From contig JAUSPT010000076.1 of assembly GCA_030652805.1 (NCBI GenBank), positions 1 through 41,295 of the forward strand: a stretch of 41,295 bases of DNA. Reading direction: 5' to 3'. This stretch comes from a bacterium (GTDB taxonomy: Bacteria; JAHJDO01). The notes beneath the pieces are model-generated. The model was not told the DNA's origin, did no database searches, and worked only from the letters and a program-made list of their open reading frames with translations. This document shows positions 11,341 to 27,201 of this stretch, piece after piece (within the stretch, counting starts at the first letter, position 1; each line of letters opens with the position of its first letter). Position numbers and translations under genes: made by a program.

Positions 11341-11358
11341 AATCCAATACAGGAAGGG

Positions 11359-14016
11359 ATGATTAAGAAGTTATTTGTCGTTCATCATACTCATACAGAC
11401 ATTGGCTATACAGATATCCAGACTAAGATAATGAATGACCATGTTGATTTTATAGATAAGGTCTTGGATTATTGCAAAGAGACGGATAATTATCCAGAAG
11501 AATCAAAATTTAAATGGACATGTGAAGTTTCATGGACAGTTAAAAATTATTTAAAAAAAAGACCTGAAAGGATTAATGAGTTCATTCAAAGGGTAAAAGA
11601 AGGGAGAATAGAAGTAACCGGACTTTATCTGAATGTTACTGAATTATATACTGCCGAGGAACTTATTCGTTCTCTCTATTTTGCTAAGAAGTTAGAAAAA
11701 AATTATGGAATTAAAGTAGTTTCTGCAATGAACTCCGACGTGCCCGGCTTATCCTGGGGTCTTCCGCAAATTTTTCCCGGAGCAGGTATTAAATATCTTT
11801 CTATGGCTCCTAATAGTATCAGGGCTAAAAGGATTTCAGTTCCCCAGCCTTTTTATTGGATTTCTCCTGATGAAAGCAGGGTTCTTGTCTGGACCAATAA
11901 TGATTCTTATGGAGCAGGATATAATCTTGGACTTGGAAGTAGTTATAAAACATTTTCTAAAAAGCTACCTGAATATCTCAGACATCTTGAAAATAAAAAT
12001 TATCCCTACGATGCTTATTGCCTGCGAATGGCCATGGATAATGTTGATCCTCATATTGAACTCTCCAAAATTGCTAGAGAATGGAACGAGAAACATGTTT
12101 CTCCTCAAATTATTGTCTCCACAAACAAAGATTTCTTTGAGTATATGGAGAAGAAATACAAAAACAAATTTCCGTCTTATAAACTTGCCTGGCCGGACTG
12201 GTGGGCTGACGGGAGTGCATCCGCTGCTTATGAGACAGGGCTATCAAGGAAGACAAAAAGAAGGTTAAAGGTCGCAGAAGCGCTCCTTGCTCTGCAATCG
12301 TTCTATCAAAGCCCTTATCCTAAAAGAGAGATTGATAATATCTGGGATAATTTAATGTTTTTTGATGAGCATACATGGGGAGCAACATCAACATACGGAC
12401 TCGAATCCCCTATAGCAAAAGGGAGCTGGGCGATAAAGTCTTCCTTTATTTATAATGCCGTCGTAGAGGCCGAAAGGCTTCTGAAGAAAGCAAAGATTCT
12501 GACTAATAGGAAAGATTCTGCAGGGAAAAAGGACGTTTTTAATTTAGAATTATTACTACTTCAGGAACACAGTGACTCACTTAAGGAGATAGTTGTATTT
12601 AGCCCGTTCTTTCAGAGCAGAAAATCTCTTATTTCTTTTACAATGGGCCGTGAAGCATTGAAAGAAAAGTTTCATGTTAAAGATGGAAAGGAGATTTTGC
12701 CGATTCAGGTAGAAAAGATAGATAGAGAGGTTCCATGGAAAAAAGAAGAAGCAAAAGTTTCTTTTGTAGCCACCATTCCATCTTTTGGCTATAAAACCTT
12801 TGAGGTGATTTCCCGGGGTTCAGCTTATCAGTCTGATTTCTCTTTTGGAAAAGATAGCATTGAGAATAATTTTTATAAAGTTTCTCTTGACCATATCACC
12901 GGCGGGATAAAAAGCATCTATGATAAGCAGCTTGGAAGAGAATTGGTGGAGCAAAAAAGTCCCTATAGAGTTAATCAGTGTATCTATGAAGAGGCAGCCT
13001 TCGCCGGAGGAAAAAATCCTTTGGAACAGAGAGAGACAATTTTCAATGCTATCAAGTTTTATGGTGTTACTTCTGCAATAAAAGAAAGAGACACAAAATT
13101 TCGCAGGTTTAGTCCAACAATTTCTGAAATAAAGAGAGGCAAGGATGGCACTGTGATGGGCAGCTTAATCTCAGAGGCCAAGTTAAGAAAATGCCGTAAA
13201 ATCATCCAGGAGGTTATTCTTTATCATGACCTGAAGAGAATAGATATAGTGAACACCATCTTCAAGGAAGAAACCCTAAATCCAGAAGCTGTTTATTATG
13301 CTTTTCCCTTTAATTTTAAGAATCCAGAGATAAAATTTGAAATTGCCGGGGCATCAATGAGACCGGAAATTGACCAATTACCCGGTTCAGCCAAGGATTA
13401 TTATTCTATTCAGGACTGGGTCTCTATTTCAGATAAAGATTGTAGTGTAGTCTGGACTGCAAAAGAGGCTCCTCTGGTTCAGTTTGGGGAAATAAATACA
13501 GGAAAATGGCTTAGTAATGTCCGAATAAAAAATGGCACTCTTTTCTCATGGATAATGAATAATTACTGGTTTACGAATTTTAGGGCAAGCCAGGGAGGAA
13601 AATCTGTTTTTCATTATTCCCTTACAAGTTGTAAAGGGAAGATTAATAACTCAACAGCTTCTCTCTTTGCCCAAGAGTGCAATAACTCCTCAATTAGTCT
13701 AGCAATTGATAAAAACCTAAAAGTAGCTTTGCCGAAAAAATACAGTTTTATTTCTTTGGATAAGAAAAATGTTTCTCTTTTAGCCTTAAAAGGGGCTGAG
13801 GACAAAAAAGGATTGATTCTTCGTCTAATAGAGACAGATGGTAGGGATACTGTTATAAAAATAACCTTACCGTTTCTTGAAATTAAAAAGGCCTATCAAA
13901 CGAATCTAGTGGAGGAGAATCAAAAAGAAATTTCCGCAGGAAAGCATTTAATAAACATGTCTATTAAATCATTTGGTATTGCTACGATCAGGATTCAGCG
14001 CTTTGAAAAATCCTAA
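11359..14016 (+). CDS. GH38 alpha-mannosidase-like enzyme
   Basis: 885 residues, ATG at 11359 after AGGAAGGG. The N-terminal catalytic barrel carries the zinc-binding HHTHTDIGYTD (His and Asp ligands), the nucleophile Asp127 in NSDVPGLSWGLP, and the later zinc-site FFDEHTWGA. The C-terminal half (about 400-885) is the beta-rich GH38C region. GH38 enzymes are retaining alpha-mannosidases with a catalytic-site metal. The 'HTHTDIGYTD' start marks the divergent bacterial subgroup often annotated only as 'glycoside hydrolase family 38 N-terminal domain protein', so the exact linkage is unknown. No signal peptide is visible. It is the last gene of the catabolic run; the next gene has its own promoter about 50 bases downstream. 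Confidence 0.88.
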   Translation: MIKKLFVVHHTHTDIGYTDIQTKIMNDHVDFIDKVLDYCKETDNYPEESKFKWTCEVSWTVKNYLKKRPERINEFIQRVKEGRIEVTGLYLNVTELYTAEELIRSLYFAKKLEKNYGIKVVSAMNSDVPGLSWGLPQIFPGAGIKYLSMAPNSIRAKRISVPQPFYWISPDESRVLVWTNNDSYGAGYNLGLGSSYKTFSKKLPEYLRHLENKNYPYDAYCLRMAMDNVDPHIELSKIAREWNEKHVSPQIIVSTNKDFFEYMEKKYKNKFPSYKLAWPDWWADGSASAAYETGLSRKTKRRLKVAEALLALQSFYQSPYPKREIDNIWDNLMFFDEHTWGATSTYGLESPIAKGSWAIKSSFIYNAVVEAERLLKKAKILTNRKDSAGKKDVFNLELLLLQEHSDSLKEIVVFSPFFQSRKSLISFTMGREALKEKFHVKDGKEILPIQVEKIDREVPWKKEEAKVSFVATIPSFGYKTFEVISRGSAYQSDFSFGKDSIENNFYKVSLDHITGGIKSIYDKQLGRELVEQKSPYRVNQCIYEEAAFAGGKNPLEQRETIFNAIKFYGVTSAIKERDTKFRRFSPTISEIKRGKDGTVMGSLISEAKLRKCRKIIQEVILYHDLKRIDIVNTIFKEETLNPEAVYYAFPFNFKNPEIKFEIAGASMRPEIDQLPGSAKDYYSIQDWVSISDKDCSVVWTAKEAPLVQFGEINTGKWLSNVRIKNGTLFSWIMNNYWFTNFRASQGGKSVFHYSLTSCKGKINNSTASLFAQECNNSSISLAIDKNLKVALPKKYSFISLDKKNVSLLALKGAEDKKGLILRLIETDGRDTVIKITLPFLEIKKAYQTNLVEENQKEISAGKHLINMSIKSFGIATIRIQRFEKS

Positions 14017-14150: not shown

Positions 14151-17100
14151 ATGAAGATTAATTCAAAAAATTTGTTTTTCGTTATTCTCTCAATACTTTT
14201 TATCAGTGTCCCCCTCTATTCAACACCAAAGATAGAAAATATATTAGCACTAGAAAAAGCCGGGCTGTCTGAGGAAGCAAAGGGGCATTATGATAAGGCA
14301 TTTGCATTGTATGAAAAGCTAATTAGAGAGACTTCCGATGGCGTACAGCAGGAGATATATCTAAGAAGAATTTTTGATATGCGTTTCAGTATCAGTAATA
14401 AAACAAACGTCTTAAAAATCTGTAAATATATAAGAAAAGGCAGAAAATCTAACCAATCACTAAAATCTCTTGCTAAATGGTTTATGCTGCAGCTATACCT
14501 TGAGGACGGAAAAATTGAGGCGGCAAAGAGCTTGTGCAAAAAACTCGGTTTTATTCAAAACTGGTTTGCAATAGGTCCTTTTGACAATGATGGGAAAACA
14601 GGTTTTGACAAAGAATACCCGCCTGAGACGGAAATAAAAATTTCTTCCGAATATCAGGGTAAGGATAGAGAAGTAAAATGGAGACATATAAATATTGAAT
14701 CTCCGTCAGGATTTGTTGACCTTGGAGCTATTTTCAGACCAAATAAAAATACGTGTAGTTACTTACTAACATTTGTTAAATCAAGCAAGAAAAGAGAAGT
14801 TGCATTTAGAATGGGACACGATGATGCAATTAAGATATGGCTAAATAACAGCTTAGTTTTTAGCAATAATAATTATCATGCTGCACGATTTGATCAGAGT
14901 CATGCAAGAGTCCTTCTTAACAAAGGATGGAACAAAATCCTGATTAAGCTCTGTCAAAAACAGGAGAAATGGGGATTGCTTTTTAGAATAACATCTCCAA
15001 ATGGCAACCCTATATCAAGACTAAAGGTCAGGGCAAATCTGCCCGCAAAGATAGCAGAACATGTTCCTGTGGAAGATACTGTCAGAACTGACTCAGGAAG
15101 TATATCCTGTCTTGAAGAAAGCATCAAAACCGACGCGGGTAATGCGCAACTCTATTATTATTTATCATATTTATACAACAAAAGTCTGCCATATGACGAA
15201 ACCGAACATAAGGATTTTCTATGTATAACAAAGGCTATTCAGCTAAATCCCAATAATCCCTTTTACACCCATCTTGGAGCAAATCTTGCAGATCAACCAA
15301 ACAAAAGAAGAGAGCTGCTGGAAAAAACGATTAAATTAGATCCTTATTTTATAATAGCATTTTATCAATTAGCGGAATATTATTTAAATGCCGATAATCT
15401 GACAAAAGCTCTGCATACAGTTAATAAATGTCTTGATATTAATCCATCATTTCTCCCGTCAATTTGTCTAAAAATCTCTATTTACTCAAAACAAGGATTA
15501 ACCCCGCTTATTTCTCCTTTGCTTGAAGAGGTAAAAGATGCTCCTACACATAAGAAAGAAACACGGAATAATATAATCCGCTATTATGAGTATCATCGTT
15601 CACAGGAAGAAACCTTAGCACAACTCCGAAAGCTTTCAGAGATAGATTTTACAGATAACTGTGCAAGAGACAAGATCGTTAAAATTTTACTAGATACGAG
15701 CAAGGATTCAGAAGCATTGAATAGACTATGTGAAATGTCGGCCTTGAGTCCGTATGATACGAGCATATATCTTCGCAGAGCAAAGATATATGCTAACAGA
15801 TACCAATTCCATAAAGCCATTAAAGTATGTAATCAAGCAATTATTATCTGTCCAGAGAACTATGAAATACTTTCAAGTTTAGGACTTCTGTATCGACGCA
15901 TTGGTAATTACGAAAAGTTTGAGGGGTTTGTCAATGAGGCGTTGAAAATAAAGCCTGACTATACATGGCTCAGAAAATACGCTGAATTTGTGAGTCCAAA
16001 GAAAGAAGCGTATGAAGAGAATTTTACAGAGAACATAGCAGCAATAATCAATTCTGCAAATAACCTAAAACAGACTGATAGCGAAGCTGTTTATCTACTT
16101 GATAAAGCAATCTCACGGGTATATATGGATGGCACTTCGTCTGAATATATACATCAAGTCATTAAAATTCTTACAGATAAAGGCGTAAGGGATTTCAATC
16201 ATCTCAACATATATTATGTGCCTGGAGACCAGGAAGTTATTATTAAAAAAGCATGCATTATAAAAAAAGATGGAACAATAAGAGATTATTATAAATTCTC
16301 TGACGTGTCCACATCCAGCCCACAGTACAGAACATACTATGATTACAGAAGAAAAACCATTAAGTTTAGTTCTCTTGAAAAAGGGGATATTATTGATTTT
16401 GAATACAATGTCAACGATATAGGGGGCAATATATATGGTGATTACTTTGGAAATATGTTCCTGTTTAAAGATACAAATCCTATAATTTTTTCTAAATACA
16501 TTCTCATTGCTCCAAAACGCCGCAAATTTTATTTTTATAGCCCAAAGCTCCATATCATTCCCCGAAAAATTTATGATAAACATGCAGATACTATTAGCTA
16601 TATTTGGGAGAAAAGGAACATTGGAAAAATAGACAAAGAGTTGAGTATGCCTCCTTACCAAGAGATTACTCCGTATCTGCTTATATCTACATTTAAGGAT
16701 TGGACAGATATGGCCAGGTGGTACGCTGATCTTACAAGGGATCAGATGGAATCATCTCCTGAAATAAAAAAGATAGTAGCCTCATTAACAGAAAATAAGA
16801 ATACAGAAATTGATAAGATTGAAGCTATATACAATTATGTTGTTAAGAAAATTAGATATGTAGCTCTGGAATTCGGCATACATGGTTATAAGCCATATAA
16901 AGCATGCCAGGTATTTAGCAGGAAATTCGGTGACTGCAAGGATAAAGCTCTACTGATTATGACAATGCTTAAAGAAGCTGGGATTCCTTCAGAAATTGTA
17001 CTTGTAAGAACAAGATCCCTGGGCAGGTTTGATTTCTCCCAAGCCTCTCTTGGCTTATTTAATCACGCAATATGTCATATCAGACTTAAGGGTGGAAAAG

Positions 17101-17882
17101 AGCTCTGGCTGGATGGCACTGCTGAATATAGCAGTATCAATGAGATACCATGGATGGATCAGGGGGCTCGTGTGTTTGTAGTAGACCTGAAGCGGAGAAA
17201 GGGCATATTATCTGAAATACCTGTTAGCGCAGGCATTCATAATAATCGCATTTCAGATAAAAATGTATTATTAAAAAACGATGGCAGCGCATACATTGGC
17301 GGAACAGAAATAGTTAGTGGAGCATTCTGTTCTGGAATTAGATACTTCTTCCAAATTCCTTCAAAGCAAAAGGAGGAGTTTGAAAAATTATTAAACACCG
17401 TATTTGAAGGTGTGCAAGTAATAAATATCCATTTCCCTGATTTATCAGGACTGGATACTCCTATAAAATACAATTATGCTGTTAGTGTGCCAAAGTTCTT
17501 AAAACCTGTTTCCGAAGGCTTTTCATTTAATCCTGTTATGTTAAGGCACAAACTTACTCAAAGGTATGCTTCAAGTAGTATACGAAAACATGATTTCTTA
17601 CTTTCGTATCCATTTATGGATAACAAAACAACTGAATTCTTACTCCCACAAGGTTATGAAGCAATTCACTTGCCTCAAGATGTTGAGCTGAAAAGTAAAT
17701 TCGGCTCTCTATCAATGATATATGGTAAATTACCTGATAAGATTATAGTTAAAATAAAGCTTCAGTTAGATGTCTCAAGAGTTTTGCCTGAAGAGTATTC
17801 AGAATTTCGCAAATTTGTTGCAGACGTAGATAAGAACGAAAACAAGGAAATAATAATTAAAAAGATACCTGTGGCTGAATGA
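14151..17882 (+). CDS. Exported TPR/jelly-roll/DUF3857/transglutaminase protein, active-site triad intact
   Basis: Starting at the ATG at 14151 gives 1243 residues with a signal peptide (KNLFFVILSILFISVPLYST). Order: short TPR-like helices; a jelly-roll of the 'WFAIGPFDND...EYPPE...GWNKILIKL' type (about 137-290) common in PVC exported proteins; TPR repeats (about 325-600); a DUF3857 domain (about 665-820; 'KILTDKGVRDFNHLNIYYVPGDQEV'); then a transglutaminase core. The triad is complete: Cys929 in FGDCKDKA, His972 in FNHAICH, Asp988 in LWLDGTAEY. Its role is probably a periplasmic or outer-membrane protein-processing or crosslinking enzyme. It overlaps the next gene by ATGA. A paralogue of similar size lies at 22515-26276 with the triad lost. 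No substrate is known. Confidence 0.85.
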   Translation: MKINSKNLFFVILSILFISVPLYSTPKIENILALEKAGLSEEAKGHYDKAFALYEKLIRETSDGVQQEIYLRRIFDMRFSISNKTNVLKICKYIRKGRKSNQSLKSLAKWFMLQLYLEDGKIEAAKSLCKKLGFIQNWFAIGPFDNDGKTGFDKEYPPETEIKISSEYQGKDREVKWRHINIESPSGFVDLGAIFRPNKNTCSYLLTFVKSSKKREVAFRMGHDDAIKIWLNNSLVFSNNNYHAARFDQSHARVLLNKGWNKILIKLCQKQEKWGLLFRITSPNGNPISRLKVRANLPAKIAEHVPVEDTVRTDSGSISCLEESIKTDAGNAQLYYYLSYLYNKSLPYDETEHKDFLCITKAIQLNPNNPFYTHLGANLADQPNKRRELLEKTIKLDPYFIIAFYQLAEYYLNADNLTKALHTVNKCLDINPSFLPSICLKISIYSKQGLTPLISPLLEEVKDAPTHKKETRNNIIRYYEYHRSQEETLAQLRKLSEIDFTDNCARDKIVKILLDTSKDSEALNRLCEMSALSPYDTSIYLRRAKIYANRYQFHKAIKVCNQAIIICPENYEILSSLGLLYRRIGNYEKFEGFVNEALKIKPDYTWLRKYAEFVSPKKEAYEENFTENIAAIINSANNLKQTDSEAVYLLDKAISRVYMDGTSSEYIHQVIKILTDKGVRDFNHLNIYYVPGDQEVIIKKACIIKKDGTIRDYYKFSDVSTSSPQYRTYYDYRRKTIKFSSLEKGDIIDFEYNVNDIGGNIYGDYFGNMFLFKDTNPIIFSKYILIAPKRRKFYFYSPKLHIIPRKIYDKHADTISYIWEKRNIGKIDKELSMPPYQEITPYLLISTFKDWTDMARWYADLTRDQMESSPEIKKIVASLTENKNTEIDKIEAIYNYVVKKIRYVALEFGIHGYKPYKACQVFSRKFGDCKDKALLIMTMLKEAGIPSEIVLVRTRSLGRFDFSQASLGLFNHAICHIRLKGGKELWLDGTAEYSSINEIPWMDQGARVFVVDLKRRKGILSEIPVSAGIHNNRISDKNVLLKNDGSAYIGGTEIVSGAFCSGIRYFFQIPSKQKEEFEKLLNTVFEGVQVINIHFPDLSGLDTPIKYNYAVSVPKFLKPVSEGFSFNPVMLRHKLTQRYASSSIRKHDFLLSYPFMDNKTTEFLLPQGYEAIHLPQDVELKSKFGSLSMIYGKLPDKIIVKIKLQLDVSRVLPEEYSEFRKFVADVDKNENKEIIIKKIPVAE

Positions 17883-18466
17883 TGAAAACAAGAAGAAAGA
17901 GACAACTTTGGAAACTTGAAGTCGCAGTTGTTCTAGCCGGAGTAGTTATGCTTATCTCTTTAGCTGACTGTAACTCGCTAAAACTCATTACATTTACTGA
18001 CATACAAGGACATACTGAACCAACAGTTGTGGTAAAAAAAGAATATAGTTATCAAGAAATGCTAAAGGTTATTAAATCAGCTAAAGAATCTCTATGGATC
18101 TGCGACATTAAATATGAAGATAATCTTTCAGATGAGGTCAATCCCGGAATAGTTAATACAATTCTTCAAGCGGAGCAGCGTGGAGTAGATGTCAGAATTA
18201 TGCACAGAGAGACAGGTACTCTCTGGCTTAATAAATTAAGGAGAGCGGGAATTGTAAATATCTTGGTCCCTCCGTGTGAAAGCAAGATGGTAAGAGAGAA
18301 ATCAAAATATGTAATCGCAGATAAAAAAGTTGTGTTTGTGCAGGACGACAAGCTTGATCATCGTCCAAGAATAATAAGGCACTATTCGCGTGTTAGAGAT
18401 TATATCATAGATTTTAGTGAGAGGTGGAATGAATCAGAGAGGAGAATTAGAAAATATGGTAACTAA
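17879..18466 (+). CDS. Membrane-anchored PLD-like protein with degenerate HKD motif
   Basis: 195 residues beginning with a basic stretch and one hydrophobic helix (LEVAVVLAGVVMLISLADC). The LADC is a poor lipobox, so an N-terminal membrane anchor is more likely. The soluble part resembles one half of a phospholipase D fold: 'YQEMLKVIKSAKESLWICDIKY', 'ILQAEQRGVDVRIMHRE', and then KSKYVIADKKVVFV where the family has H-x-K-x4-D. Here the His is replaced by Lys, leaving K-x-K-x4-D, so catalysis is doubtful. Only one such motif exists, whereas active PLDs need two (by dimer or repeat). It may be a binding partner. The start overlaps the giant gene's stop by four bases. Confidence 0.5.
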   Translation: MMKTRRKRQLWKLEVAVVLAGVVMLISLADCNSLKLITFTDIQGHTEPTVVVKKEYSYQEMLKVIKSAKESLWICDIKYEDNLSDEVNPGIVNTILQAEQRGVDVRIMHRETGTLWLNKLRRAGIVNILVPPCESKMVREKSKYVIADKKVVFVQDDKLDHRPRIIRHYSRVRDYIIDFSERWNESERRIRKYGN

Positions 18467-18977
18467 ATTAGTATATCTAAAATTGGGTTTATTGAGTCTT
18501 TTGGTCTTTTTATTAACAGGGTGCGCTTGTATCCCCGGAGGTATTTCAGCTTCAAGTACGCCTCTTAACAATAGGCCATATCATATACTTGGGCATACCT
18601 CGGCAACTGATAGTAGATTTCTTATACTGGGATTTATACCAGTAACAGGAAGTAACTCAACAAGAGACGCGCTTAATGAGGCAATTAAGGATGCTGGAGC
18701 TGATGCGTTAATTGATGTAACGGTAGAAGCATATGGACAATGGTTTATACTATTTTCCAGGGTAGTAACAAAAGTAGAAGGAATTGGTATTCGGTTTGAG
18801 CATTATAAGCAAGAGCCTGAGAATATAGGCGTAAAGAGCAAAAATACGGATAGTGAAGCTATTGCAGATTATATTACAGAAGCAGTAAAAGAAAAGAGAG
18901 AAAGAGAGAGCAAAAAGCAAAAGCAGAAAACGGATCCTGAAAAAACGGGAATGTGGGATAAGATTAAAATTGATTAA
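18456..18977 (+). CDS. Small lipoprotein of unknown function
   Basis: The ATG at 18456 (173 residues) is chosen over 18417 because GAGAGGAG lies just upstream and the protein then starts with a lipoprotein signal: LGLLSLLVFLLTGC, lipobox LTGC with Cys23. It overlaps the PLD-like gene by 11 bases. The middle 'TRDALNEAIKDAGADALIDVTVEAYG' recalls the small TRL/DUF6567-type lipoproteins in which a repeated 'GADALIDVTV' strand is conserved. The C-terminus (about 135-173) is highly charged and helical, rich in Lys, Glu and Gln. An outer-membrane-attached protein is inferred. The family match is weak. Confidence 0.7.
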   Translation: MVTKLVYLKLGLLSLLVFLLTGCACIPGGISASSTPLNNRPYHILGHTSATDSRFLILGFIPVTGSNSTRDALNEAIKDAGADALIDVTVEAYGQWFILFSRVVTKVEGIGIRFEHYKQEPENIGVKSKNTDSEAIADYITEAVKEKRERESKKQKQKTDPEKTGMWDKIKID

Positions 18978-18992
18978 CGTAGGAGCTCAAAA

Positions 18993-20387
18993 ATGAAAGC
19001 ACATAGCAAGTATTTGACAATCCTGTGTTTATTTCTGGTAGTTTCAATAGTTGGTTGCGGCGTAATTAAGAAACGTCCATCTAACGATCTTATTCGAGGC
19101 GCGTTAAAGTACAAATTACCTCCAGCGCTGAAAATAGTAGATTTGAAAGCAGATGAATGGAGTTCATCAGGTAAACTCGGAGAAATTATCACTATTTTTT
19201 CTGCGCAGGTTATTCCTAAAGAAGACCTTGTAGAACAGGTCGATTATATTGAAGGGACTTCCATTGTAAAGATTGTTTTTCCAAAAACAAAAAGCGTTCC
19301 AATTAGTGGTAAGGCGTTTGCCAAACAATTTGGAGATCAATGGGAAGTTCAAGTAGAAATTAGCGAAAAGCACAAAGTGCTGTATTTTGTAGAAGAACCA
19401 ATATCAAAATATCAACCGGCAATTCTAGCAGGAAGCAAAGAAGCAGAGAAATTAAAATTAGCGGAGATAAACAAAAATTTGCTTATAGAGTCTAAAAAAC
19501 TTGATGCAGAAAAGAAGTTGGAAGAAAAAAAAGAGCAAATAAGACAGCAACAGCTTGAAGAAGAAGGACAAAGGGATCTTGTTTTACGAAGCAAAATGTT
19601 CTCAGCAATAATCAATGCACCAGGTCTTGTTGGAGGGCCAGAGAAAAAGATACGCGATTGGTATATCTTTATTGAAAACAAAGATCCTAAAAAACTTCTT
19701 TTTACCGGTACTATTATTAAAGAACTTATAATTGGTGGATCTGTCCCTTTTTCGGGTAGAATTGAAAAGGGTGGGATAGCAGTCTTGGAAACAGTTGCCG
19801 ATGACGAAACAAAAAATATTATACTTAACCAGGTAGATGTAACCGGCCGTGTGACAGGAAGATACTTTGCTTTTATGCCAATATCAGAAAATAAGGCAAA
19901 AGAAGTAAAAGGAACATTAGAATATATGAAAGCATGGGGCGAAAGAGATTTTATTATTAAAACACTGAGTAAAGAGGACGCCATACTACTTCTTGATCAA
20001 ACTGAGTATTATACTCCAAAGGGAACAGCAACGAATTCAAGTTATCAAGATCATTCTATGATGTTAGATAATGATTTTAGTACATGGCAGCGTTTAGGTG
20101 ATAAAACTGGATGGCTTAATGTTTATTTTAAAACGCCGCAAAAATGTATGGGAATTTTGTTATACAGACCCGGTTCCAAAACAATAATCAAATCCGCAAA
20201 TATAAAGATTAATAATGGGAAAAGGATTTCCTTCTCAACTACAGCAGAAAAAGGGAGTCTTTTAATTCCTTTCACAAAAGAGGAATCTATTAAAAACATT
20301 AGGATAAATATTATCCAATCGGATAAAATCACTGGATTTGCAGAAATAGTTTTTATTTCTCGCTTGAAAGATAATAAGGGAAACTAA
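18993..20387 (+). CDS. Lipoprotein with coiled coil and discoidin-like C-terminal domain
   Basis: 464 residues, ATG behind AGGAG. A lipoprotein signal ends with IVGC (Cys22). Residues about 30-135 form a small alpha/beta domain I do not recognise. Residues about 150-200 are a charged coiled coil rich in Lys, Glu and Gln. The C-terminal part (about 335-455) looks like an F5/8 type C (discoidin) jelly-roll: 'GTATNSSYQDHSMMLDNDFSTWQRLG..GWLNVYFKTPQKCMGILLYRPG' is the familiar opening in which a tally of solvent-exposed strands binds sugar or lipid. It is placed between a small lipoprotein and a polytopic protein in the same operon, so it is likely an exposed or periplasmic binding protein. Function is not known. 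Confidence 0.75.
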   Translation: MKAHSKYLTILCLFLVVSIVGCGVIKKRPSNDLIRGALKYKLPPALKIVDLKADEWSSSGKLGEIITIFSAQVIPKEDLVEQVDYIEGTSIVKIVFPKTKSVPISGKAFAKQFGDQWEVQVEISEKHKVLYFVEEPISKYQPAILAGSKEAEKLKLAEINKNLLIESKKLDAEKKLEEKKEQIRQQQLEEEGQRDLVLRSKMFSAIINAPGLVGGPEKKIRDWYIFIENKDPKKLLFTGTIIKELIIGGSVPFSGRIEKGGIAVLETVADDETKNIILNQVDVTGRVTGRYFAFMPISENKAKEVKGTLEYMKAWGERDFIIKTLSKEDAILLLDQTEYYTPKGTATNSSYQDHSMMLDNDFSTWQRLGDKTGWLNVYFKTPQKCMGILLYRPGSKTIIKSANIKINNGKRISFSTTAEKGSLLIPFTKEESIKNIRINIIQSDKITGFAEIVFISRLKDNKGN

Positions 20388-20414
20388 AATAAGAATAAAC
20401 AAGCAGGAGGGAAA

Positions 20415-20891
20415 ATGGAACAAAAAAAGGTTAAAAAATTTTCGCATTCGCTTTTTGGAATTATCCTTATTTGTTTTTTATTACCGTTTATAAGTGTTTC
20501 TTGTAACGGTCAGAAGTGTCTAACTTTAAGTGGGAGACAACTGATTACTGGCACAACTATTAAATATCCAAGTGGATTTGGTTATACCCAAGAGCAGAAA
20601 ATAGATGGAGAGCCACTGGCACTAATAGTCTTTCTGTGCGCTACTGGTGGTTTATTATTGAGCTTTGCAAAACATAAAAGCGGAATTATCGGCACTACAA
20701 TCAGTGGCGTTGCTGGCTTAATAGCCCTTTTGTCGCTTAAAGGAAAACTTAACAATGATATTGCAAGGGAAGGTATGGGATCTTATTTTGAATATCTTAT
20801 AGGATATCAACTAATGTTGCTGTGCTTTCTTTTAGCTATAGGCTTAAGTATTTATCTTATTATAAATTATAAAGGGAACGAAAAGTTGTGA
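20415..20891 (+). CDS. Four-helix membrane protein of unknown family
   Basis: 158 residues, ATG behind CAGGAGGG. Four hydrophobic segments are visible: about 10-30 (LFGIILICFLLPFISVSC), 68-86 (ALIVFLCATGGLLLSF), 93-108 (IIGTTISGVAGLIALLSL) and 130-152 (YQLMLLCFLLAIGLSIYLII). The loop after helix 1 contains 'SCNGQKCLTLSGRQLITG', which would face outward. The 'PFISVSCNG' opening followed by a soluble loop and three helices is often seen in small bacterial envelope proteins annotated only as hypothetical. The stop codon overlaps the next gene's GTG. Confidence 0.7.
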   Translation: MEQKKVKKFSHSLFGIILICFLLPFISVSCNGQKCLTLSGRQLITGTTIKYPSGFGYTQEQKIDGEPLALIVFLCATGGLLLSFAKHKSGIIGTTISGVAGLIALLSLKGKLNNDIAREGMGSYFEYLIGYQLMLLCFLLAIGLSIYLIINYKGNEKL

Positions 20892-21112
20892 GTGATGGTT
20901 GGGGCGTTTTTTATTGTATTTGTTTTTTGATTTATTTCATTCCTACGTTTGTTGCGTTTTCCAGAGACCATGAAAATAAGGGGTGGATTACGTTGGTTAA
21001 TATCATAATTGGTTGGACTGGTCTTGGTTGGCTAGCAGTGCTTCTCTGGGCAGGATTAGGAAATAAAGCGCAGAGGATTAAATCTTCTAATGAAGGGTCG
21101 AATGAGAAATGA
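20888..21112 (+). CDS. Superinfection-immunity (Imm, PF14373-like) membrane protein
   Basis: 74 residues starting at a GTG that overlaps the previous stop (GTGA). The pattern 'FYCICFLIYFIPTFVAFSRDHENKGWITLVNIIIGWTGLGWLAVLLWA' is the core of the phage T4 Imm family: two helices, a short charged loop with 'H.NKGWI..LN', and the GWTGLGW signature. In T4 the protein blocks DNA entry of a second phage. Most bacterial members occur in small envelope operons without phage context, and their role is not known. Here there is no phage gene nearby, so either a defence role or a general membrane role is possible. It is the last gene before the 20-bp repeat. Confidence 0.8.
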   Translation: MSDGWGVFYCICFLIYFIPTFVAFSRDHENKGWITLVNIIIGWTGLGWLAVLLWAGLGNKAQRIKSSNEGSNEK

Positions 21113-21130
21113 TGAAAAGAAAGGACAGTT

Positions 21131-21150
21131 TTAGATGAGATTATTTAAAA
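21131..21150 (+). repeat. Left copy of 20-bp direct repeat flanking the AlbA_2 gene
   Basis: TTAGATGAGATTATTTAAAA occurs here and again, identical, at 22511-22530. The two copies are 1380 bases apart and bracket a single gene. The right copy covers the start codon and first codons of the second giant gene. The left copy retains the strong AAAGGA site (about 21118-21124) at proper spacing. The pair indicates insertion or local duplication. Confidence 0.85.
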
Positions 21151-21170
21151 TGTATTGGTTTAGATATTAA
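21135..21170 (+). pseudogene. Abandoned start of the second DUF3857 giant gene
   Basis: ATG at 21135 follows AAAGGA by a normal distance and reads MRLFKMYWFRY before a stop at 21168-21170. The first five residues equal those of the protein at 22515 (MRLFK). It is the original 5' end, cut off from its body by the inserted regulator gene. Confidence 0.7.
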
Positions 21171-21174
21171 AATT

Positions 21175-22518
21175 ATGAAAACCGAAGAATTAAAGCTCAT
21201 AATCAAAGAAGGCGAAGGCTTAACGGTTGAGTTTAAGGAGAAATACACCTCAAAGATTAATCGTGATATTGTTGCTTTTGCCAATTCAAAAGGCGGATTG
21301 TTGCTTCTTGGAGTTAACGACAGTGGGAAAATAGTCGGTGAGATGCTAACGAACAAGATGAAATCTGAAATAAATACGATTGCCAGAAATTGTGAGCCGT
21401 CAATCCACATTAAGAAAATTCAGCAGGCTGAAGAGATTGTTGTTGTTGAGATCGCCGAAGGAGATGAAAAGCCGTATAGCTGTTCCGCTGGATATTTCCG
21501 CAGGCTTGACGCTGTTACGCAGAAGATGACACAACGAGAAGTGCACTCTATCTTCCGTGAGACGGGTACTATTTCTTTCGAGGACATCACTTGCAAAGAT
21601 TTAAGCCTTAATGATATTTCATTTAAAAAAGTAAAATCATTTCTGCAGGTAGCGAATACATCCTATAAGGTTAGCAAAGCAAATATTCCTTCTTTTCTTA
21701 CAAGTCTAAGCATATATAGGAAAGGCAAAATCAGTAATGCAGGGACGTTGATGTTTGCGTCTAAAGTTAAGAGATTTATCCCTCATGCAGAAAGTATTCT
21801 AGGAGCTTTTAAGGGAAGGGATAAGACGAATATTTACGACCGCAAAGATGTTCAGGATGATTTATTGACGCAATTTAATGAAGCTGAGACTTTTCTTAAG
21901 AAACATTTAAACGTAAGGAGCGAAATAAAAGGATTTAACCGTCAGGATATTTATGAAATTCCTCTGGACGCCTTAAGGGAAGCGGTAGTTAATGCGATAG
22001 TTCATCGAAATTATAGCATAAAAGGCACGAGTATATATGTAAGGATTTATGATGATCGCTTGGAGATAGAAAATCCCGGCGGGTTGCCTGATGGCGTTAC
22101 AAAGCATAATTTCGGTAAATCATCAGTAAGAAGAAATCCAATTATTGCGGATTTATTCCACCGCATGGGTAAGGTTGAACGTATGGGCTCTGGAATTGAT
22201 CGTATGAGAGATCTTATGCGTGAAGCCGGTCTGAAAGAGCCTGTGTTTGAAATGGGTGGGTTTTTCCGTGTTATCTTCTATCGCGACCCACGCTATTCGC
22301 TTAAAGTTGGAGAAACTAGGGAGAAAACTAGGGAGAAAACTAGGGAGAAAATATTGCGGTTGATGCAAGAAAATCCCGGGGTTACCACGAAAGAATTGAC
22401 TGGAATGGTCGGGATAACTTCCAAAGGAATAGAATGGCATATCAAAAAGCTAAAAAAAGAAGGCTTTATTAAGCGTATCGGCTCGGCAAAAGGTGGACAC
22501 TGGGAAATAATTAGATGA
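21175..22518 (+). CDS. AlbA_2 (Schlafen-like)/HATPase transcriptional regulator
   Basis: 447 residues. N-terminal AlbA_2 domain (about 12-125): 'EGLTVEFKEKY', 'DIVAFANSKGGLLLLGVNDSGKIVG', then 'RRLDAVTQKMTQREVHSIFRE'. A HATPase_c_4-like domain follows (about 255-345) with 'LREAVVNAIVHRNYSIKG' and 'ENPGGLPDGVT'. The C-terminus (about 385-447) is a winged helix: 'ILRLMQENPGVTTKELTGMVGITSKGIEWHIKKLKKEGFIKR'. These proteins, often mis-labelled RecG-like, are taken as DNA-binding regulators and are frequent near mobile or defence genes. There is no clear ribosome site before the ATG. The TGA overlaps the next gene's ATG. The gene lies between exact 20-bp repeats and seems to be a recent arrival. 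Confidence 0.85.
   Translation: MKTEELKLIIKEGEGLTVEFKEKYTSKINRDIVAFANSKGGLLLLGVNDSGKIVGEMLTNKMKSEINTIARNCEPSIHIKKIQQAEEIVVVEIAEGDEKPYSCSAGYFRRLDAVTQKMTQREVHSIFRETGTISFEDITCKDLSLNDISFKKVKSFLQVANTSYKVSKANIPSFLTSLSIYRKGKISNAGTLMFASKVKRFIPHAESILGAFKGRDKTNIYDRKDVQDDLLTQFNEAETFLKKHLNVRSEIKGFNRQDIYEIPLDALREAVVNAIVHRNYSIKGTSIYVRIYDDRLEIENPGGLPDGVTKHNFGKSSVRRNPIIADLFHRMGKVERMGSGIDRMRDLMREAGLKEPVFEMGGFFRVIFYRDPRYSLKVGETREKTREKTREKILRLMQENPGVTTKELTGMVGITSKGIEWHIKKLKKEGFIKRIGSAKGGHWEIIR
22315..22350 (+). repeat. 12-bp tandem repeat, three copies, inside the AlbA_2 gene
   Basis: ACTAGGGAGAAA is repeated exactly at 22315, 22327 and 22339, with part of a fourth copy before it. It encodes T-R-E-K units (REKTREKTREK) in the linker just before the winged helix. 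As a multiple of three, copy-number change would lengthen the linker without breaking the frame. Confidence 0.9.
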
Positions 22519-22530
22519 GATTATTTAAAA
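22511..22530 (+). repeat. Right copy of 20-bp direct repeat flanking the AlbA_2 gene
   Basis: It is identical to 21131-21150. It contains the TGA of the AlbA_2 gene and the ATG of the giant gene in ATGA overlap. No good ribosome-binding site lies before this ATG, unlike the left copy. Confidence 0.85.
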
Positions 22531-25500
22531 ATTTCGCTCTAGTAATACTTATATGCTTAATAACAGCAAACGCAACTGCTGATTCTTTGTCTCGAGGCTG
22601 GAAGGCTCTTTATCAGAACAGGTATGACGAAGCCATTGAATATTTCTCTAAAGACATTGGCCAGAATAAAAATGCAGTGTCTGCATATGAGGGGATGGCT
22701 TTTGCCTATGAAGCCAGAGGTAAATATGACGAGATGCTGAATAGCTGGCTGAAAATATTAAAGGAGGATCCTGATTCTGCAAGAAGCACGGTTATATTGC
22801 AAAGCATGTTGAACTCATCTAACAAGTTTAATAAGTTAACGGATTATAAAAAAGCTATTAAGGTTCTTGCGAAGACATTAAAAAAAGGAATAAGTAATCA
22901 GAGAAACAAGTTTCTCATAAAACAGGTTATTGTAAAATTCTATAACCTCACTCATCAGTTAAAAAAGGCTGAAAAAATATATGCTTCTTTTGGATATGTA
23001 ACTGAATGGGCAGTAATAGGTCCGTTTGGCAGATTTGGACGCTCATGTTTCTATGAGGAATTTCCTCCAGAACAAGAGATCAAATTCGATGCCAGTTATC
23101 AGGGATATACCGGAGAGATTCGCTGGAGACGTTTTGATGGCATCTTCAGAAATGGCTTAGTCGACTTTAAACAGATAGTTAAGCCAAATGTTGGATGTGC
23201 TTATGCGCTGACGTTTATATATTCTCCTTTTAGGCAGGATGTGATTTTCAAGCTCCAAACACCGCATGCTTGGAAAGCATGGGTCAACTATCAATGCGTC
23301 TCTGTATGTGACAGATATAAGAATTTCTATCCTCTTACTAATTCGTTTCCTGTTTCCCTGGAGGAAGGGTGGAATTCTCTGCTTATCAAGTCTGTTTGTG
23401 ATGTAGAATTAGGCAGCTGGACACTTAAGTTAAGAGTAACTGACCTGAAAGAAAAAAACTGTACAAATCTAAAGTTTACGGATAACTTATCAACTGCGTC
23501 ATTGCGAGGAGTTCCAAAAGTCCCGAAAGCTTTCGGGAGTACGACGTGGCAACCTGAAACTGAGTTGCTTCGGGAGTCTCTCCCTCGCAATGATATTGAA
23601 TGTTTAGATGATAAAGCGCTGAATTATTACTATACCGGCATGCTTCTTTATTTCCAAGGACTGCAAGATAAGGGGATAAAATACCTAAAGAATGCGGTAG
23701 AGCTTCAGCCCAAATTCTCAGGATTTTTGTATGCAATCGGCAAGACGTATGAACAAGCCAGATTTCTCCCAAAAATAGAAAGAGAAAACAAAGCAAAGGA
23801 TTTTTACAATAAAGTTATCGAATATGACAGCCAGTATGTACCCGCTTTAGGAGCCCTGGGCCTATATTTTGAGAGAAACAAGTTGTATGAAGAAGCAATA
23901 GAGAAATTTAGACATACAATAAAAATAAATTCTGAGTTTGCTCATGGCTATGTTGATCTTGGAAGAGTTTACAGGAATAGAGGATGGGATTTAGAAGCCA
24001 CAAAATCCATTGATTTTGCTTTAAAAATCAATCCAGAGCTAAAAGATGCCTTAGTGCTTAAAGCAAAGTTATACACTGACAGAACCCAGTTTAATAAAGC
24101 AGAAAGGATCTATAAAAAAATCGGCAATATACCTGTCTCTTTATTACTCAGGCAAGGCAAATATGATCAGGCAGTAGAGCAATATAATGCCAGTATAAAA
24201 GCTAATCCATTGAGAACAGATCTACGGCTGGAATTGGGTAGATTATATTCTAAATTGGGAGACCAGAGAGGCGCATACAAACAGTATAAAGATATTCTGG
24301 ACATTATACCAACATACAGTATGTGCTATAAACTATTGGGAACCCTCCTCTATGCTGAGCATATGACTAATAGTGCAATAGAAGCATGGGAATCTGCCTT
24401 AAAGCTTAATCCACGTGATTATGAACTCAGAAACCTGTTAGCTGAAATAAAAACAAGTACAGCACCCTATACTTTAAAGAAATTTAATACAGTAAAACTA
24501 ATTTCGGATAATAAAGATCTGAGCGAACTTCCCAATGCCTACACTGCTGCTTTATATAATGGGAAGGTTATAATTCTTAATACAGACGGCAGTTACAAGG
24601 AGATAGTACACAGGATAGTTAAAATCCTCAGTGAAATAGGGATAGAAAAATATGGTGAAATTTACATCCCTGGGAACCTGGAAGAATTAAGGGTATTCCT
24701 TAAAGACGGAACAATATTGGAACCTGTAAAGATAAAGGGGAAAAATACCTACTCTATTCATGGATTAGAGAAGGATGCAGTGATAGAGTATAAATATACA
24801 GTCGAACATAAATCATATAATATTGCTAAAGATTATTTTAGATTACCTCCATTCTATTTCCAGGCATTTAATGAAGCTCTCCTCTGGTCTCGTTATACCG
24901 TAATATTACCCTCAGACATTAATGTGTCATATATATCTAAAAATTTAGGGGGGAACATAGTAAAGGAAGAAAAAAACTTGGAAGGCAATAAAAAACTTGT
25001 TCAGTTCGAATGCCATAACATTCCAGGTGTTACAGAAGAGGTTATGATGCCTCCAGAAGAAGATGTATTACCAAATATTATTATAACGGCTTCTATGAAA
25101 TTGGATAAAGTGAGTGATCTATACAGAAGTTTAATTATGGGAACATCTGTTGTTACGTCTATACTTAAAGACACAACTTATGAAATTATAAAGGCTTGTA
25201 ACACCCCTCATGAAAAGGCAGAGGCAATATACTACTATATAAACAGGACTATTAAACATAACAGCGCTAAGTTTGAACCTGCAATATCTACGTTAGCAGA
25301 AAAAAGTGGAAATAAAGCTATTTTGCTAAAAGTAATGTTGGATATAGCAGGGCTGGATGCAACTTATGTTCTTGTAAGACCCAATACATTTGCAAAAATG
25401 GCTACACCCTATTATGGCGCTTTTTCAACACCACTTGTAAAACTTAATCTTCAGGGGAACAATGTTTGGCTTGACATAAGCAACAAATATCTTAAGTTTG

Positions 25501-26276
25501 GCGAAATTTCTTCGAGTTTAACAAATGGAGATGCACTTGTTTTTAATACAACTAATTATCAGACATGCAAAACTCCTCCCTTGGATCTTTCAGCTAATGG
25601 CGCAGAAACAAGTCTAGTTATAAATATTAACAGAGATATTAACGGAAAATCTGATTGTTTGGCAGAGGAAACCTATCCGGGCAATTTATCCGGTTTATTT
25701 CGCCTTGTTTTTCTTGAGGGCATAGAAAAAAATCTATGGGGTAAATATATTGAAAAAGGTCTGGCAAACTCCTTTGGAGAGCCTGTATTAGAAAAGGCAG
25801 AATTCCCAAATATAGATAATCCTGAAGAGCCATTTCGTATAAAATATAAATTCAAGATATCCGATTTTCTCCAACAGGTATCGGGACAAGATGATGAGTT
25901 TATATTCAACCCTATTCCTTTTAAACTTGAACTCAGCAAAAAATATATACAAAAAACCCAGCGAAAATTCCCAATCAAAATAAAGCTTGAATTTACTCCT
26001 CTATATCTAGATCAGCAGTTTGATATAAATATCCCTGACAATTTTATCATTAAGGATACGCCTCAAGATATTACTGAAGAGAGTAAATTTGGTAAATATC
26101 TAGTTAAATTTACTTTCAATAAGAACACACTGAAAGTAAAACAGCACTTTGAACTTTTCCCTCAAGAAATCTCTGCCTTGGATTATCCCAAGTTTGTAGA
26201 TTTCTGCCGCAGGATTGATGCTCTGGAAAAGAAAACTATTTCGCTTCAGATAAAAACGGTCTCTGAGATAAAATAA
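22515..26276 (+). CDS. Exported TPR/jelly-roll/DUF3857 protein with inactive transglutaminase-like domain
   Basis: 1253 residues with a signal peptide (NFALVILICLITANATA) followed at once by TPR-type helices. The layout matches the protein at 14151-17882: jelly-roll (about 165-312; 'WAVIGPFGRF...EFPPEQEI...GWNSLLIKS'), TPR repeats (about 370-655), DUF3857 (about 690-845; 'KILSEIGIEKYGEIYIPGN') and a transglutaminase-like fold. The catalytic Cys aligns with Ser931 (EKSGNKA) and the His with Thr972 (FSTPLV); only Asp987 (VWLD) remains. It is thus probably a non-catalytic partner or substrate-binding protein. Residues about 328-360 are encoded by a palindromic repeat. The start overlaps the AlbA_2 stop, and translation now seems to depend on that gene. 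Confidence 0.85.
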   Translation: MRLFKNFALVILICLITANATADSLSRGWKALYQNRYDEAIEYFSKDIGQNKNAVSAYEGMAFAYEARGKYDEMLNSWLKILKEDPDSARSTVILQSMLNSSNKFNKLTDYKKAIKVLAKTLKKGISNQRNKFLIKQVIVKFYNLTHQLKKAEKIYASFGYVTEWAVIGPFGRFGRSCFYEEFPPEQEIKFDASYQGYTGEIRWRRFDGIFRNGLVDFKQIVKPNVGCAYALTFIYSPFRQDVIFKLQTPHAWKAWVNYQCVSVCDRYKNFYPLTNSFPVSLEEGWNSLLIKSVCDVELGSWTLKLRVTDLKEKNCTNLKFTDNLSTASLRGVPKVPKAFGSTTWQPETELLRESLPRNDIECLDDKALNYYYTGMLLYFQGLQDKGIKYLKNAVELQPKFSGFLYAIGKTYEQARFLPKIERENKAKDFYNKVIEYDSQYVPALGALGLYFERNKLYEEAIEKFRHTIKINSEFAHGYVDLGRVYRNRGWDLEATKSIDFALKINPELKDALVLKAKLYTDRTQFNKAERIYKKIGNIPVSLLLRQGKYDQAVEQYNASIKANPLRTDLRLELGRLYSKLGDQRGAYKQYKDILDIIPTYSMCYKLLGTLLYAEHMTNSAIEAWESALKLNPRDYELRNLLAEIKTSTAPYTLKKFNTVKLISDNKDLSELPNAYTAALYNGKVIILNTDGSYKEIVHRIVKILSEIGIEKYGEIYIPGNLEELRVFLKDGTILEPVKIKGKNTYSIHGLEKDAVIEYKYTVEHKSYNIAKDYFRLPPFYFQAFNEALLWSRYTVILPSDINVSYISKNLGGNIVKEEKNLEGNKKLVQFECHNIPGVTEEVMMPPEEDVLPNIIITASMKLDKVSDLYRSLIMGTSVVTSILKDTTYEIIKACNTPHEKAEAIYYYINRTIKHNSAKFEPAISTLAEKSGNKAILLKVMLDIAGLDATYVLVRPNTFAKMATPYYGAFSTPLVKLNLQGNNVWLDISNKYLKFGEISSSLTNGDALVFNTTNYQTCKTPPLDLSANGAETSLVININRDINGKSDCLAEETYPGNLSGLFRLVFLEGIEKNLWGKYIEKGLANSFGEPVLEKAEFPNIDNPEEPFRIKYKFKISDFLQQVSGQDDEFIFNPIPFKLELSKKYIQKTQRKFPIKIKLEFTPLYLDQQFDINIPDNFIIKDTPQDITEESKFGKYLVKFTFNKNTLKVKQHFELFPQEISALDYPKFVDFCRRIDALEKKTISLQIKTVSEIK
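23499..23593 (+). repeat. Palindromic repeat element inside a coding sequence
   Basis: The outer arms TCATTGCGAGGAG (23499-23511) and TCCCTCGCAATGA (23581-23593) are inverted copies. A perfect 18-bp palindrome TCCCGAAAGCTTTCGGGA lies at 23521-23538, and GGCAACCT/AGTTGCTT forms another hairpin. The element keeps the frame of the host gene open and encodes about 32 residues between the jelly-roll and the TPR region, where the paralogue has unrelated residues. This resembles the protein-embedded palindromic elements known in Rickettsia. Confidence 0.8.
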
Positions 26277-26319
26277 CTATTTTTTAACAGAAAAGATAAT
26301 TGTGTGTAAGAGATTAACT

Positions 26320-27201
26320 ATGAAGAAACATAAAAAAACTGAGAATGATGCAAAACGCATGTATTGGAAGGATCAGATGGAGAAAGCGTATACAATGATG
26401 ATGGATGTGCGTAATTATCCAGTTGAGGAATGTATGGAAGCATTAGTCTTATTGCAAGAGGCTGTTTCAGGGACAGGGGTAGACGTTGTGTTTTCAACAA
26501 CGAAAATTTCAAATAAATACAATCGCCTATTTTACCTTCGTGAAGGATTGCTTGATGATTTTCTCAAAATAGCACAGGATATGAATGATAATGACTGGGT
26601 ATTGAAAGTGGAGGATGCATTTCGGACCCTTCAGATGCAAAGACATCTTGCACGCGCAGAGTACACCTTTGATGTTATTCTAAATCGTGTTATATGGGAA
26701 TCCAAGGGTACTATCCCATCGTCTGATTTTCTTATGCGTCGTCTCACTGCTCTCGTTGCCACTACGGCTAAAATAGGAACACACATTTCTGGAAGCGCAA
26801 TTGACATTTCTGTTCTGGATATGAATACGAGGCAAGAGATTGATAGAGGTGGTCCATATATAGAGCTTTCAGAATTAACGCCTATGAATTCTCCGTTTGT
26901 CTCCAGGAAAGCCCGGGAAAACCGCATTAAAATCACAAATATAATGAGCCGTAACGGCTTTACAGCCTACCCGTTTGAGTTCTGGCATTATAGTAAAGGA
27001 GACGCATATGATCACTATTTAAATAAAACTGGCAGGTCTGCTCGTTATGGGCCCGTAGACTGGGACCGGAGTACAAATACACTAAACCCCGTTCCTGATC
27101 CATGTAAGCCACTAATTACACTTGATGAAATTCAGGAACACATAAAAAAGGTAGTGGAACGATCCGATTTACAGAAAACAGATCGCTCTGTTATCTATTA
27201 A
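26320..27201 (+). CDS. VanX-like D-Ala-D-Ala dipeptidase (peptidase M15)
   Basis: Starting at the ATG at 26320 gives 293 residues (a GTG at 26302 adds six). The M15D zinc motifs are present: His155 and Asp162 in GTHISGSAIDISV (H-x6-D), and Glu220 and His223 in EFWHY. VanX enzymes cleave D-Ala-D-Ala released in the cytoplasm and are zinc dependent. No signal peptide is seen, so the site is cytoplasmic. The protein is longer than VanX (about 200) by an N-terminal helical region of about 85 residues. No vanH, vanA or two-component genes are here, so resistance is not implied; peptidoglycan dipeptide recycling is more likely. An RBS-bearing but ruined GH20 gene follows 10 bases later. Confidence 0.8.
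   Translation: MKKHKKTENDAKRMYWKDQMEKAYTMMMDVRNYPVEECMEALVLLQEAVSGTGVDVVFSTTKISNKYNRLFYLREGLLDDFLKIAQDMNDNDWVLKVEDAFRTLQMQRHLARAEYTFDVILNRVIWESKGTIPSSDFLMRRLTALVATTAKIGTHISGSAIDISVLDMNTRQEIDRGGPYIELSELTPMNSPFVSRKARENRIKITNIMSRNGFTAYPFEFWHYSKGDAYDHYLNKTGRSARYGPVDWDRSTNTLNPVPDPCKPLITLDEIQEHIKKVVERSDLQKTDRSVIY

What the first reader, a model, noticed from the sequence alone, without database searches (positions are those of the whole stretch)
14151..26276. Two giant paralogues, one with an intact and one with a lost transglutaminase triad
Both proteins share signal peptide, TPR, jelly-roll, TPR, DUF3857 and transglutaminase order. The first has Cys929, His972 and Asp988; the second aligns Ser931, Thr972 and Asp987. 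An active/inactive pair in one operon recalls pseudoenzyme partners that regulate or present substrate. The substrate and target are unknown.
Basis: partly seen in the sequence, partly recalled or inferred. Interest (0 to 1): 0.75.

Follow-up and report, generated by a model that had tools for sequence, protein, structure and literature searches.

The report
Paired live and dead transglutaminase-like proteins
Two large exported proteins, one with an intact transglutaminase-type active site and one that has lost it, turn out to be an ancient two-gene unit kept together in several bacterial phyla, which suggests the inactive copy is a working partner of the active enzyme rather than a decayed duplicate.

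Summary
Genes 14151-17882 and 22515-26276 encode full-length paralogues (25% identity) with the same order: signal peptide, TPR, beta-sandwich (jelly-roll), TPR, DUF3857, transglutaminase-like (TG) fold, DUF3858. The first has Cys929/His972/Asp988. The second has lost the Cys through a 3-residue deletion and has Thr for His. This is not local: of 93 second copies with a readable TG region, none has Cys at the site, 90 show a gap there, and none has the triad. First-type copies read C-H-D in 141 of 145. Of 86 loci with both, 84 have active then inactive adjacent and co-directional, never reversed. The second-type gene occurs in 91 of 97 sampled Myxococcota genomes with the first type, and never alone there. 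Planctomycetota and Acidobacteriota agree. Inactive long forms form one tree clade; a second active/inactive tandem arose in short forms elsewhere. Both genes are under purifying selection; the TG domain is the most conserved part only in the active protein. Best reading: an exported enzyme-pseudoenzyme pair. Physical contact, substrate and chemistry are untested. In this window the pair is split by a 4.6-kb insertion.

The parts
14151..17882 (+). Active paralogue: signal peptide, short N-terminal TPR, jelly-roll, TPR array, DUF3857, TG-like domain with Cys929-His972-Asp988, DUF3858 (the frame opens at TTG 14067; ATG 14151 starts at the signal peptide)
   Evidence: C-H-D read in 141 of 145 first-type copies
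22515..26276 (+). Inactive paralogue: same domain order, TG fold kept, catalytic Cys removed by a 3-residue deletion, His replaced by Thr
16128..16622 (+). DUF3857 domain of the active paralogue
   Evidence: PF12969, 91.2 bits in the genome search; residues 688-852 of the 1271-aa frame, 86.4 bits
24540..25040 (+). DUF3857 domain of the inactive paralogue (approximate; Pfam matches its second half, 24750-25028), its most conserved domain across 61 pairs
   Evidence: PF12969, profile positions 82-168; mean pairwise identity 0.28 against 0.18-0.23 for its other domains
16653..17240 (+). TG-like domain of the active paralogue (approximate), including EFGIHGYKPY...FGDCKDKA, FNHAI and WLDGTAEY
   Evidence: PF01841 43.7 bits; most conserved domain of the protein, 0.41
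25056..25574 (+). Inactivated TG-like domain of the second paralogue (approximate); catalytic-helix motif reads EKSGNKAILL
17879..22518 (+). 4.6-kb stretch inserted at the gene junction (PLD-like ORF, small envelope/lipoprotein-like ORFs, DUF7402-like ORF, SLFN_AlbA_2 gene). Not part of the conserved pair
   Evidence: Genus mates G001-G003 have the two genes adjacent; parts of it lie at other loci in G002 and G001

Best explanation
The two genes form a conserved, exported enzyme-pseudoenzyme module. SHOWN by sequence: an ancient duplication of a TPR/jelly-roll/DUF3857/TG protein gave one lineage that keeps the Cys-His-Asp triad and one that lost the Cys, almost always by a single deletion at the catalytic-helix cap. 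The two are co-inherited, in the order active then inactive, in Myxococcota, Planctomycetota, Acidobacteriota (Aminicenantes included) and the window's own lineage. INFERRED: the first protein is a periplasmic or outer-membrane-facing papain-fold cysteine peptidase or amide transferase acting on an envelope polypeptide. The second works with it as a non-catalytic subunit, binding substrate or partner through its TPR and jelly-roll parts and its conserved DUF3857 surface, and positioning, gating or anchoring the enzyme. In many Myxococcota it appears to be a lipoprotein.
For: Triad status: 93 second-type copies, none with Cys at the site, none with the triad; 141 of 145 first-type copies C-H-D. 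Adjacency: 84 of 86 loci, never reversed. Co-occurrence: Myxococcota 91 of 97 genomes with a full-length active copy also have the inactive one, none has it alone; Planctomycetota 37 with both (one only partly seen) and none with a strong full-length active copy alone; Acidobacteriota phylum 11 of 11; own genus 5 of 5. Single clade of inactive long forms on a tree built without the TG columns (72 rows on one side, SH-aLRT 94). Mirrored divergence of the two proteins over 61 pairs, r = 0.94, permutation maximum 0.11. Purifying selection on both, dN/dS 0.17-0.24. TG is the most conserved domain in the active protein (0.41) and drops to background in the inactive one (0.23), while DUF3857 stays conserved in both (0.29, 0.28). 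Independent recurrence: in another small phylum tandem short forms again pair a C-H-D copy with a copy lacking it.
Against: No direct evidence of physical contact. Correlated divergence and gene adjacency also follow from vertical co-inheritance. Stand-alone full-length active copies exist: G050 has only one copy, and three Myxococcota genomes carry only a separate 'type 2' active copy. In sampled Myxococcaceae-type genomes the two genes are tens of kb apart. Enzyme activity of the active copy has not been shown for this family in the papers searched.
Confidence: 0.55

Rival explanations
1. Subfunctionalised neighbours: the inactive protein is an independent peptide- or glycan-binding envelope protein in the same pathway; it never touches the active one and co-occurs because both serve one process.
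For: Its TG domain has relaxed to background conservation while other parts stay; the genes can be tens of kb apart in Myxococcaceae-type genomes without loss of either; many inactive copies look like lipoproteins while active copies mostly do not (30 of 86 against 14 of 113 by a crude pattern), so they could sit in different places.
Against: Overlapping stop/start codons in many unrelated loci, fixed gene order and repeated evolution of active/inactive tandems fit a fixed-ratio complex better.
Confidence: 0.25
2. The inactive protein inhibits or chaperones the active one, keeping it off until the correct place or signal (an inhibitor, not a co-factor or presenter).
For: Active-first/inactive-second overlapping genes suit stoichiometric co-production; a catalytically dead copy could occupy the same partners.
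Against: No data separate inhibition from activation.
Confidence: 0.13
3. The second protein has a relocated or different active site, so it is an enzyme with another chemistry.
For: The TG fold is kept; an Asp remains at the triad position in 43 of 93 copies.
Against: The Cys position is empty in 90 of 93, the His position is random (A, T, E, H, G, Y, N, S...), no Cys column in the TG region is shared by more than 10 of 93 and no His column by more than 12.
Confidence: 0.06
4. The second gene is a decaying duplicate without function.
For: TG-site residues lost and divergence slightly higher (mean distance 0.79 against 0.72).
Against: Open frames of about 1200-1300 aa kept across several phyla, dN/dS about 0.21-0.24 between sister species, conserved DUF3857 motifs.
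Confidence: 0.01

Closest known systems
DUF3857 / Transglut_core / DUF3858 proteins, solved example 3KD4 (BDI_1141, Parabacteroides distasonis, 'putative protease')
   Same: Same C-terminal three-part fold: 3KD4 is the top Foldseek hit for both models (TM-score by target 0.83 active, 0.69 inactive).
   Different: 3KD4 has 506 residues, too short for the TPR and jelly-roll parts; the window proteins add about 650 N-terminal residues, and one has lost the catalytic residues.
RloB of Pseudomonas aeruginosa (inactive transglutaminase domain with seven TM helices; PMC12239564)
   Same: A catalytically inactive transglutaminase domain facing the periplasm, in an operon with a peptidase.
   Different: RloB is an integral membrane protein and its partners are an aspartic peptidase and an ATP-grasp protein, not an active TG paralogue; no TPR, jelly-roll or DUF3857 part is described in the passages read.
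Erythrocyte band 4.2 (own knowledge, not checked here)
   Same: An inactive transglutaminase homologue with a structural role.
   Different: Eukaryotic, another branch of the superfamily, not produced as a tandem with its active paralogue.

Membership tests
DUF3857-TG-DUF3858 family | PF12969 above its gathering score | tested here: met
   86.4 and 36.5 bits, cut-off 24.6
DUF3857-TG-DUF3858 family | Transglut_core (PF01841) and DUF3858 (PF12970) by profile | tested here: inconclusive
   Active: 43.7 and 34.3 bits, both over the cut-off. Inactive: no PF01841, PF12970 19.8 below 27. Fold similarity to 3KD4 and full-length homology to the active copy still place it in the family
Catalytically competent transglutaminase-like (papain-fold) enzyme | Cys-His-Asp triad, window 14151-17882 | tested here: met
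   C929/H972/D988; C-H-D in 141 of 145 first-type copies, the rest cut frames and one unrelated short form
Catalytically competent transglutaminase-like (papain-fold) enzyme | Cys-His-Asp triad, window 22515-26276 | tested here: not met
   Cys deleted, His replaced by Thr; Cys missing in all 93 second copies
Catalytically competent transglutaminase-like (papain-fold) enzyme | Measured peptidase or acyl-transfer activity | not testable with these tools
   No assay; one paper in the library mentions DUF3857 and none DUF3858
Enzyme-pseudoenzyme pair | Active and inactive paralogue consistently co-inherited | tested here: met
Enzyme-pseudoenzyme pair | Physical complex or regulation of the enzyme by the pseudoenzyme | not testable with these tools
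   No complex prediction available
RloB-type inactive transglutaminase | Fusion to seven transmembrane helices | tested here: not met
   Model and sequence show a soluble multi-domain protein behind one signal peptide

The most novel reading that the evidence does not exclude
An undescribed, cross-phylum envelope machine in which a transglutaminase-fold enzyme works only together with a dedicated dead paralogue, a solution that arose at least twice in the DUF3857 family (long TPR forms and short forms).
Probability: 0.4. Interest if true: 0.75.

Novelty: new variant of a known kind. Interest (0 to 1): 0.62.

Why it matters
DUF3857-transglutaminase proteins are widespread and almost unstudied; in the held literature only one paper mentions the domain. 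Showing that a large branch nearly always comes as an active protein plus a dead paralogue, conserved across several phyla, turns 'unknown function' into a concrete test: do the two bind, and does the dead copy control or feed the live one? Here co-occurrence, gene order, site loss and selection all point the same way.

Tried and rejected
Conserved neighbours: clustering of flanking ORFs found no gene other than the partner that travels with the active copy across phyla. Alternative catalytic residues in the inactive copy: no shared Cys or His column. Decay: rejected by dN/dS and retention. Solved-structure sequence search with the inactive C-terminal half gave nothing; only the fold comparison placed it. 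NCBIfam gave only sub-threshold TPR matches. Literature searches for DUF3857, DUF3858 and inactive bacterial transglutaminases found no description of this pair. First attempts at sub-domain references were out of frame and were redone.

Full report
WHAT IS THERE. The window holds two large co-directional genes, 14151-17882 (1243 aa from the ATG; the frame opens at TTG 14067) and 22515-26276 (1253 aa). They are paralogous along their whole length (BLASTP E = 7e-68; 25% identity by MAFFT). Pfam and AlphaFold2 models made from 30-sequence alignments (mean pLDDT 88.3 and 87.8) give both the same order: signal peptide, short TPR stretch, beta-sandwich, TPR array, DUF3857, TG-like fold, DUF3858-like C-terminus. 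Foldseek puts 3KD4, a DUF3857/TG/DUF3858 protein, first for both.

THE TRIAD. In the second the aligned stretch is EKSGNKA: alignments place a 3-residue gap exactly at D-C-K, and the His position is Thr. In the models both TG folds keep the same order of helices and strands; the inactive one is shorter in the stretch that reads EFGIHGYKPY in active copies and lacks the Cys at the head of the catalytic helix.

RELATIVES. One scan of genome contigs with the active C-terminal half, plus whole-genome searches, gave loci from several phyla. In most long-form loci a second gene of similar size follows the active one, often with overlapping stop and start. Read against one alignment, 93 second-type copies have no Cys at the site: 90 a gap, 2 Ser, 1 Thr. 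None has the full triad. The His position holds 18 different residues, with His in 8. No other Cys or His column of the TG region is shared by more than 10 and 12 copies respectively. First-type copies are C-H-D in 141 of 145; the rest are frames cut by contig ends or breaks (3) and one unrelated short form. Of 86 loci with both kinds, 84 have active then inactive next to each other on one strand and none has the reverse order. A few loci are re-fetches of the same genome, so these are not fully independent counts.

CO-OCCURRENCE. Myxococcota, 116 genomes: 97 hold a strong full-length active copy; 91 of these hold the inactive copy and no genome holds the inactive copy alone. Of the six exceptions, three have the contig end just after the active gene and three hold only a separate 'type 2' active copy. 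In Myxococcaceae-type genomes the two genes lie tens of kb apart, in most cases on one contig. Planctomycetota, 98 genomes: 37 with both (in one, G264, only an active-type fragment at a contig end), none with a strong full-length active copy and no inactive one; G237 is in fragments and was not read. Acidobacteriota phylum, 80 genomes: 11 with the inactive type, all with an active-type neighbour; the triad was read directly in three of these. Own genus: 5 of 5.

ORIGIN. A tree of 175 rows built without the TG columns puts 72 inactive long forms on one side of a branch (SH-aLRT 94) and all active copies on the other, so one ancient loss explains the long forms (quick method, long branches present). 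Three inactive short forms sit among short active forms. In that small phylum tandems of a C-H-D copy and a degenerate copy (SRD, TRD, SEY, RNE and so on) recur in most genomes examined, so the arrangement evolved at least twice.

SELECTION. Between sister species dN/dS is 0.17-0.19 for the active and 0.21-0.24 for the inactive gene. Across 61 pairs the TG domain is the most conserved part of the active protein (0.41 mean identity) but falls to 0.23 in the inactive one, where DUF3857 is highest (0.28; 0.29 in the active protein). This is what is expected if the inactive copy lost catalysis but kept a binding surface. Divergence of the two proteins is strongly correlated (r = 0.94), which shows long joint inheritance but not contact. 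Both types carry export signals in most copies; a crude pattern finds lipoprotein boxes in 30 of 86 inactive and 14 of 113 active copies, to be rechecked with a proper predictor.

THE WINDOW'S OWN ARRANGEMENT. In three sister species the active stop and inactive start touch or overlap. In the window and in G004 other genes lie at the junction; in the window it is 4.6 kb, parts of which lie elsewhere in G002 and G001. 'One operon' is therefore true of the ancestral arrangement and only possible here.

MECHANISM. Shown: exported active/inactive paralogue pair, ancient, co-inherited, both selected. Inferred from the superfamily: the first is a papain-fold cysteine enzyme cleaving or transferring amide bonds in the envelope. 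Inferred from conservation and gene order: the second is its non-catalytic partner. Not known: substrate, direction of control, complex.

KNOWN OR NEW. The domains are known; the family is nearly absent from the held literature. An inactive envelope transglutaminase, RloB, has been described (PMC12239564) but belongs to a different system. The conserved active-plus-dead pair was not found described, hence a new variant of a known kind.

Noticed in passing
17879-22518; loci L061, L062, L058, L059, L063: The junction between the two genes looks like an insertion hot spot: empty in three sister species, filled with a PLD-like ORF, small envelope ORFs and an SLFN_AlbA_2 gene here, and in G004 filled with partly different genes. 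In G004 the inactive gene's first bases (ATGAGATTATTTAAAA) recur upstream of the SLFN gene.
   Followed up: partly
Loci L071, L072, L250-L253: Short DUF3857-transglutaminase forms in a small unrelated phylum also occur as tandem active/inactive pairs, with the site lost by substitution (Cys to Ser, Thr or Arg) rather than deletion.
   Followed up: yes
Loci L152, L208, L211, L213: A separate 'type 2' full-length active copy that stands alone, without an adjacent inactive partner, in some Myxococcota.
   Followed up: partly
26302-27201: A Peptidase_M15 (D-Ala-D-Ala dipeptidase-like) gene follows the inactive copy by 25 bases on the same strand.
   Followed up: no
10237-14016: Directly upstream lie a URO-D family gene (10237-11340) and a GH38 alpha-mannosidase-like gene (11359-14016) on the same strand.
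   Followed up: no
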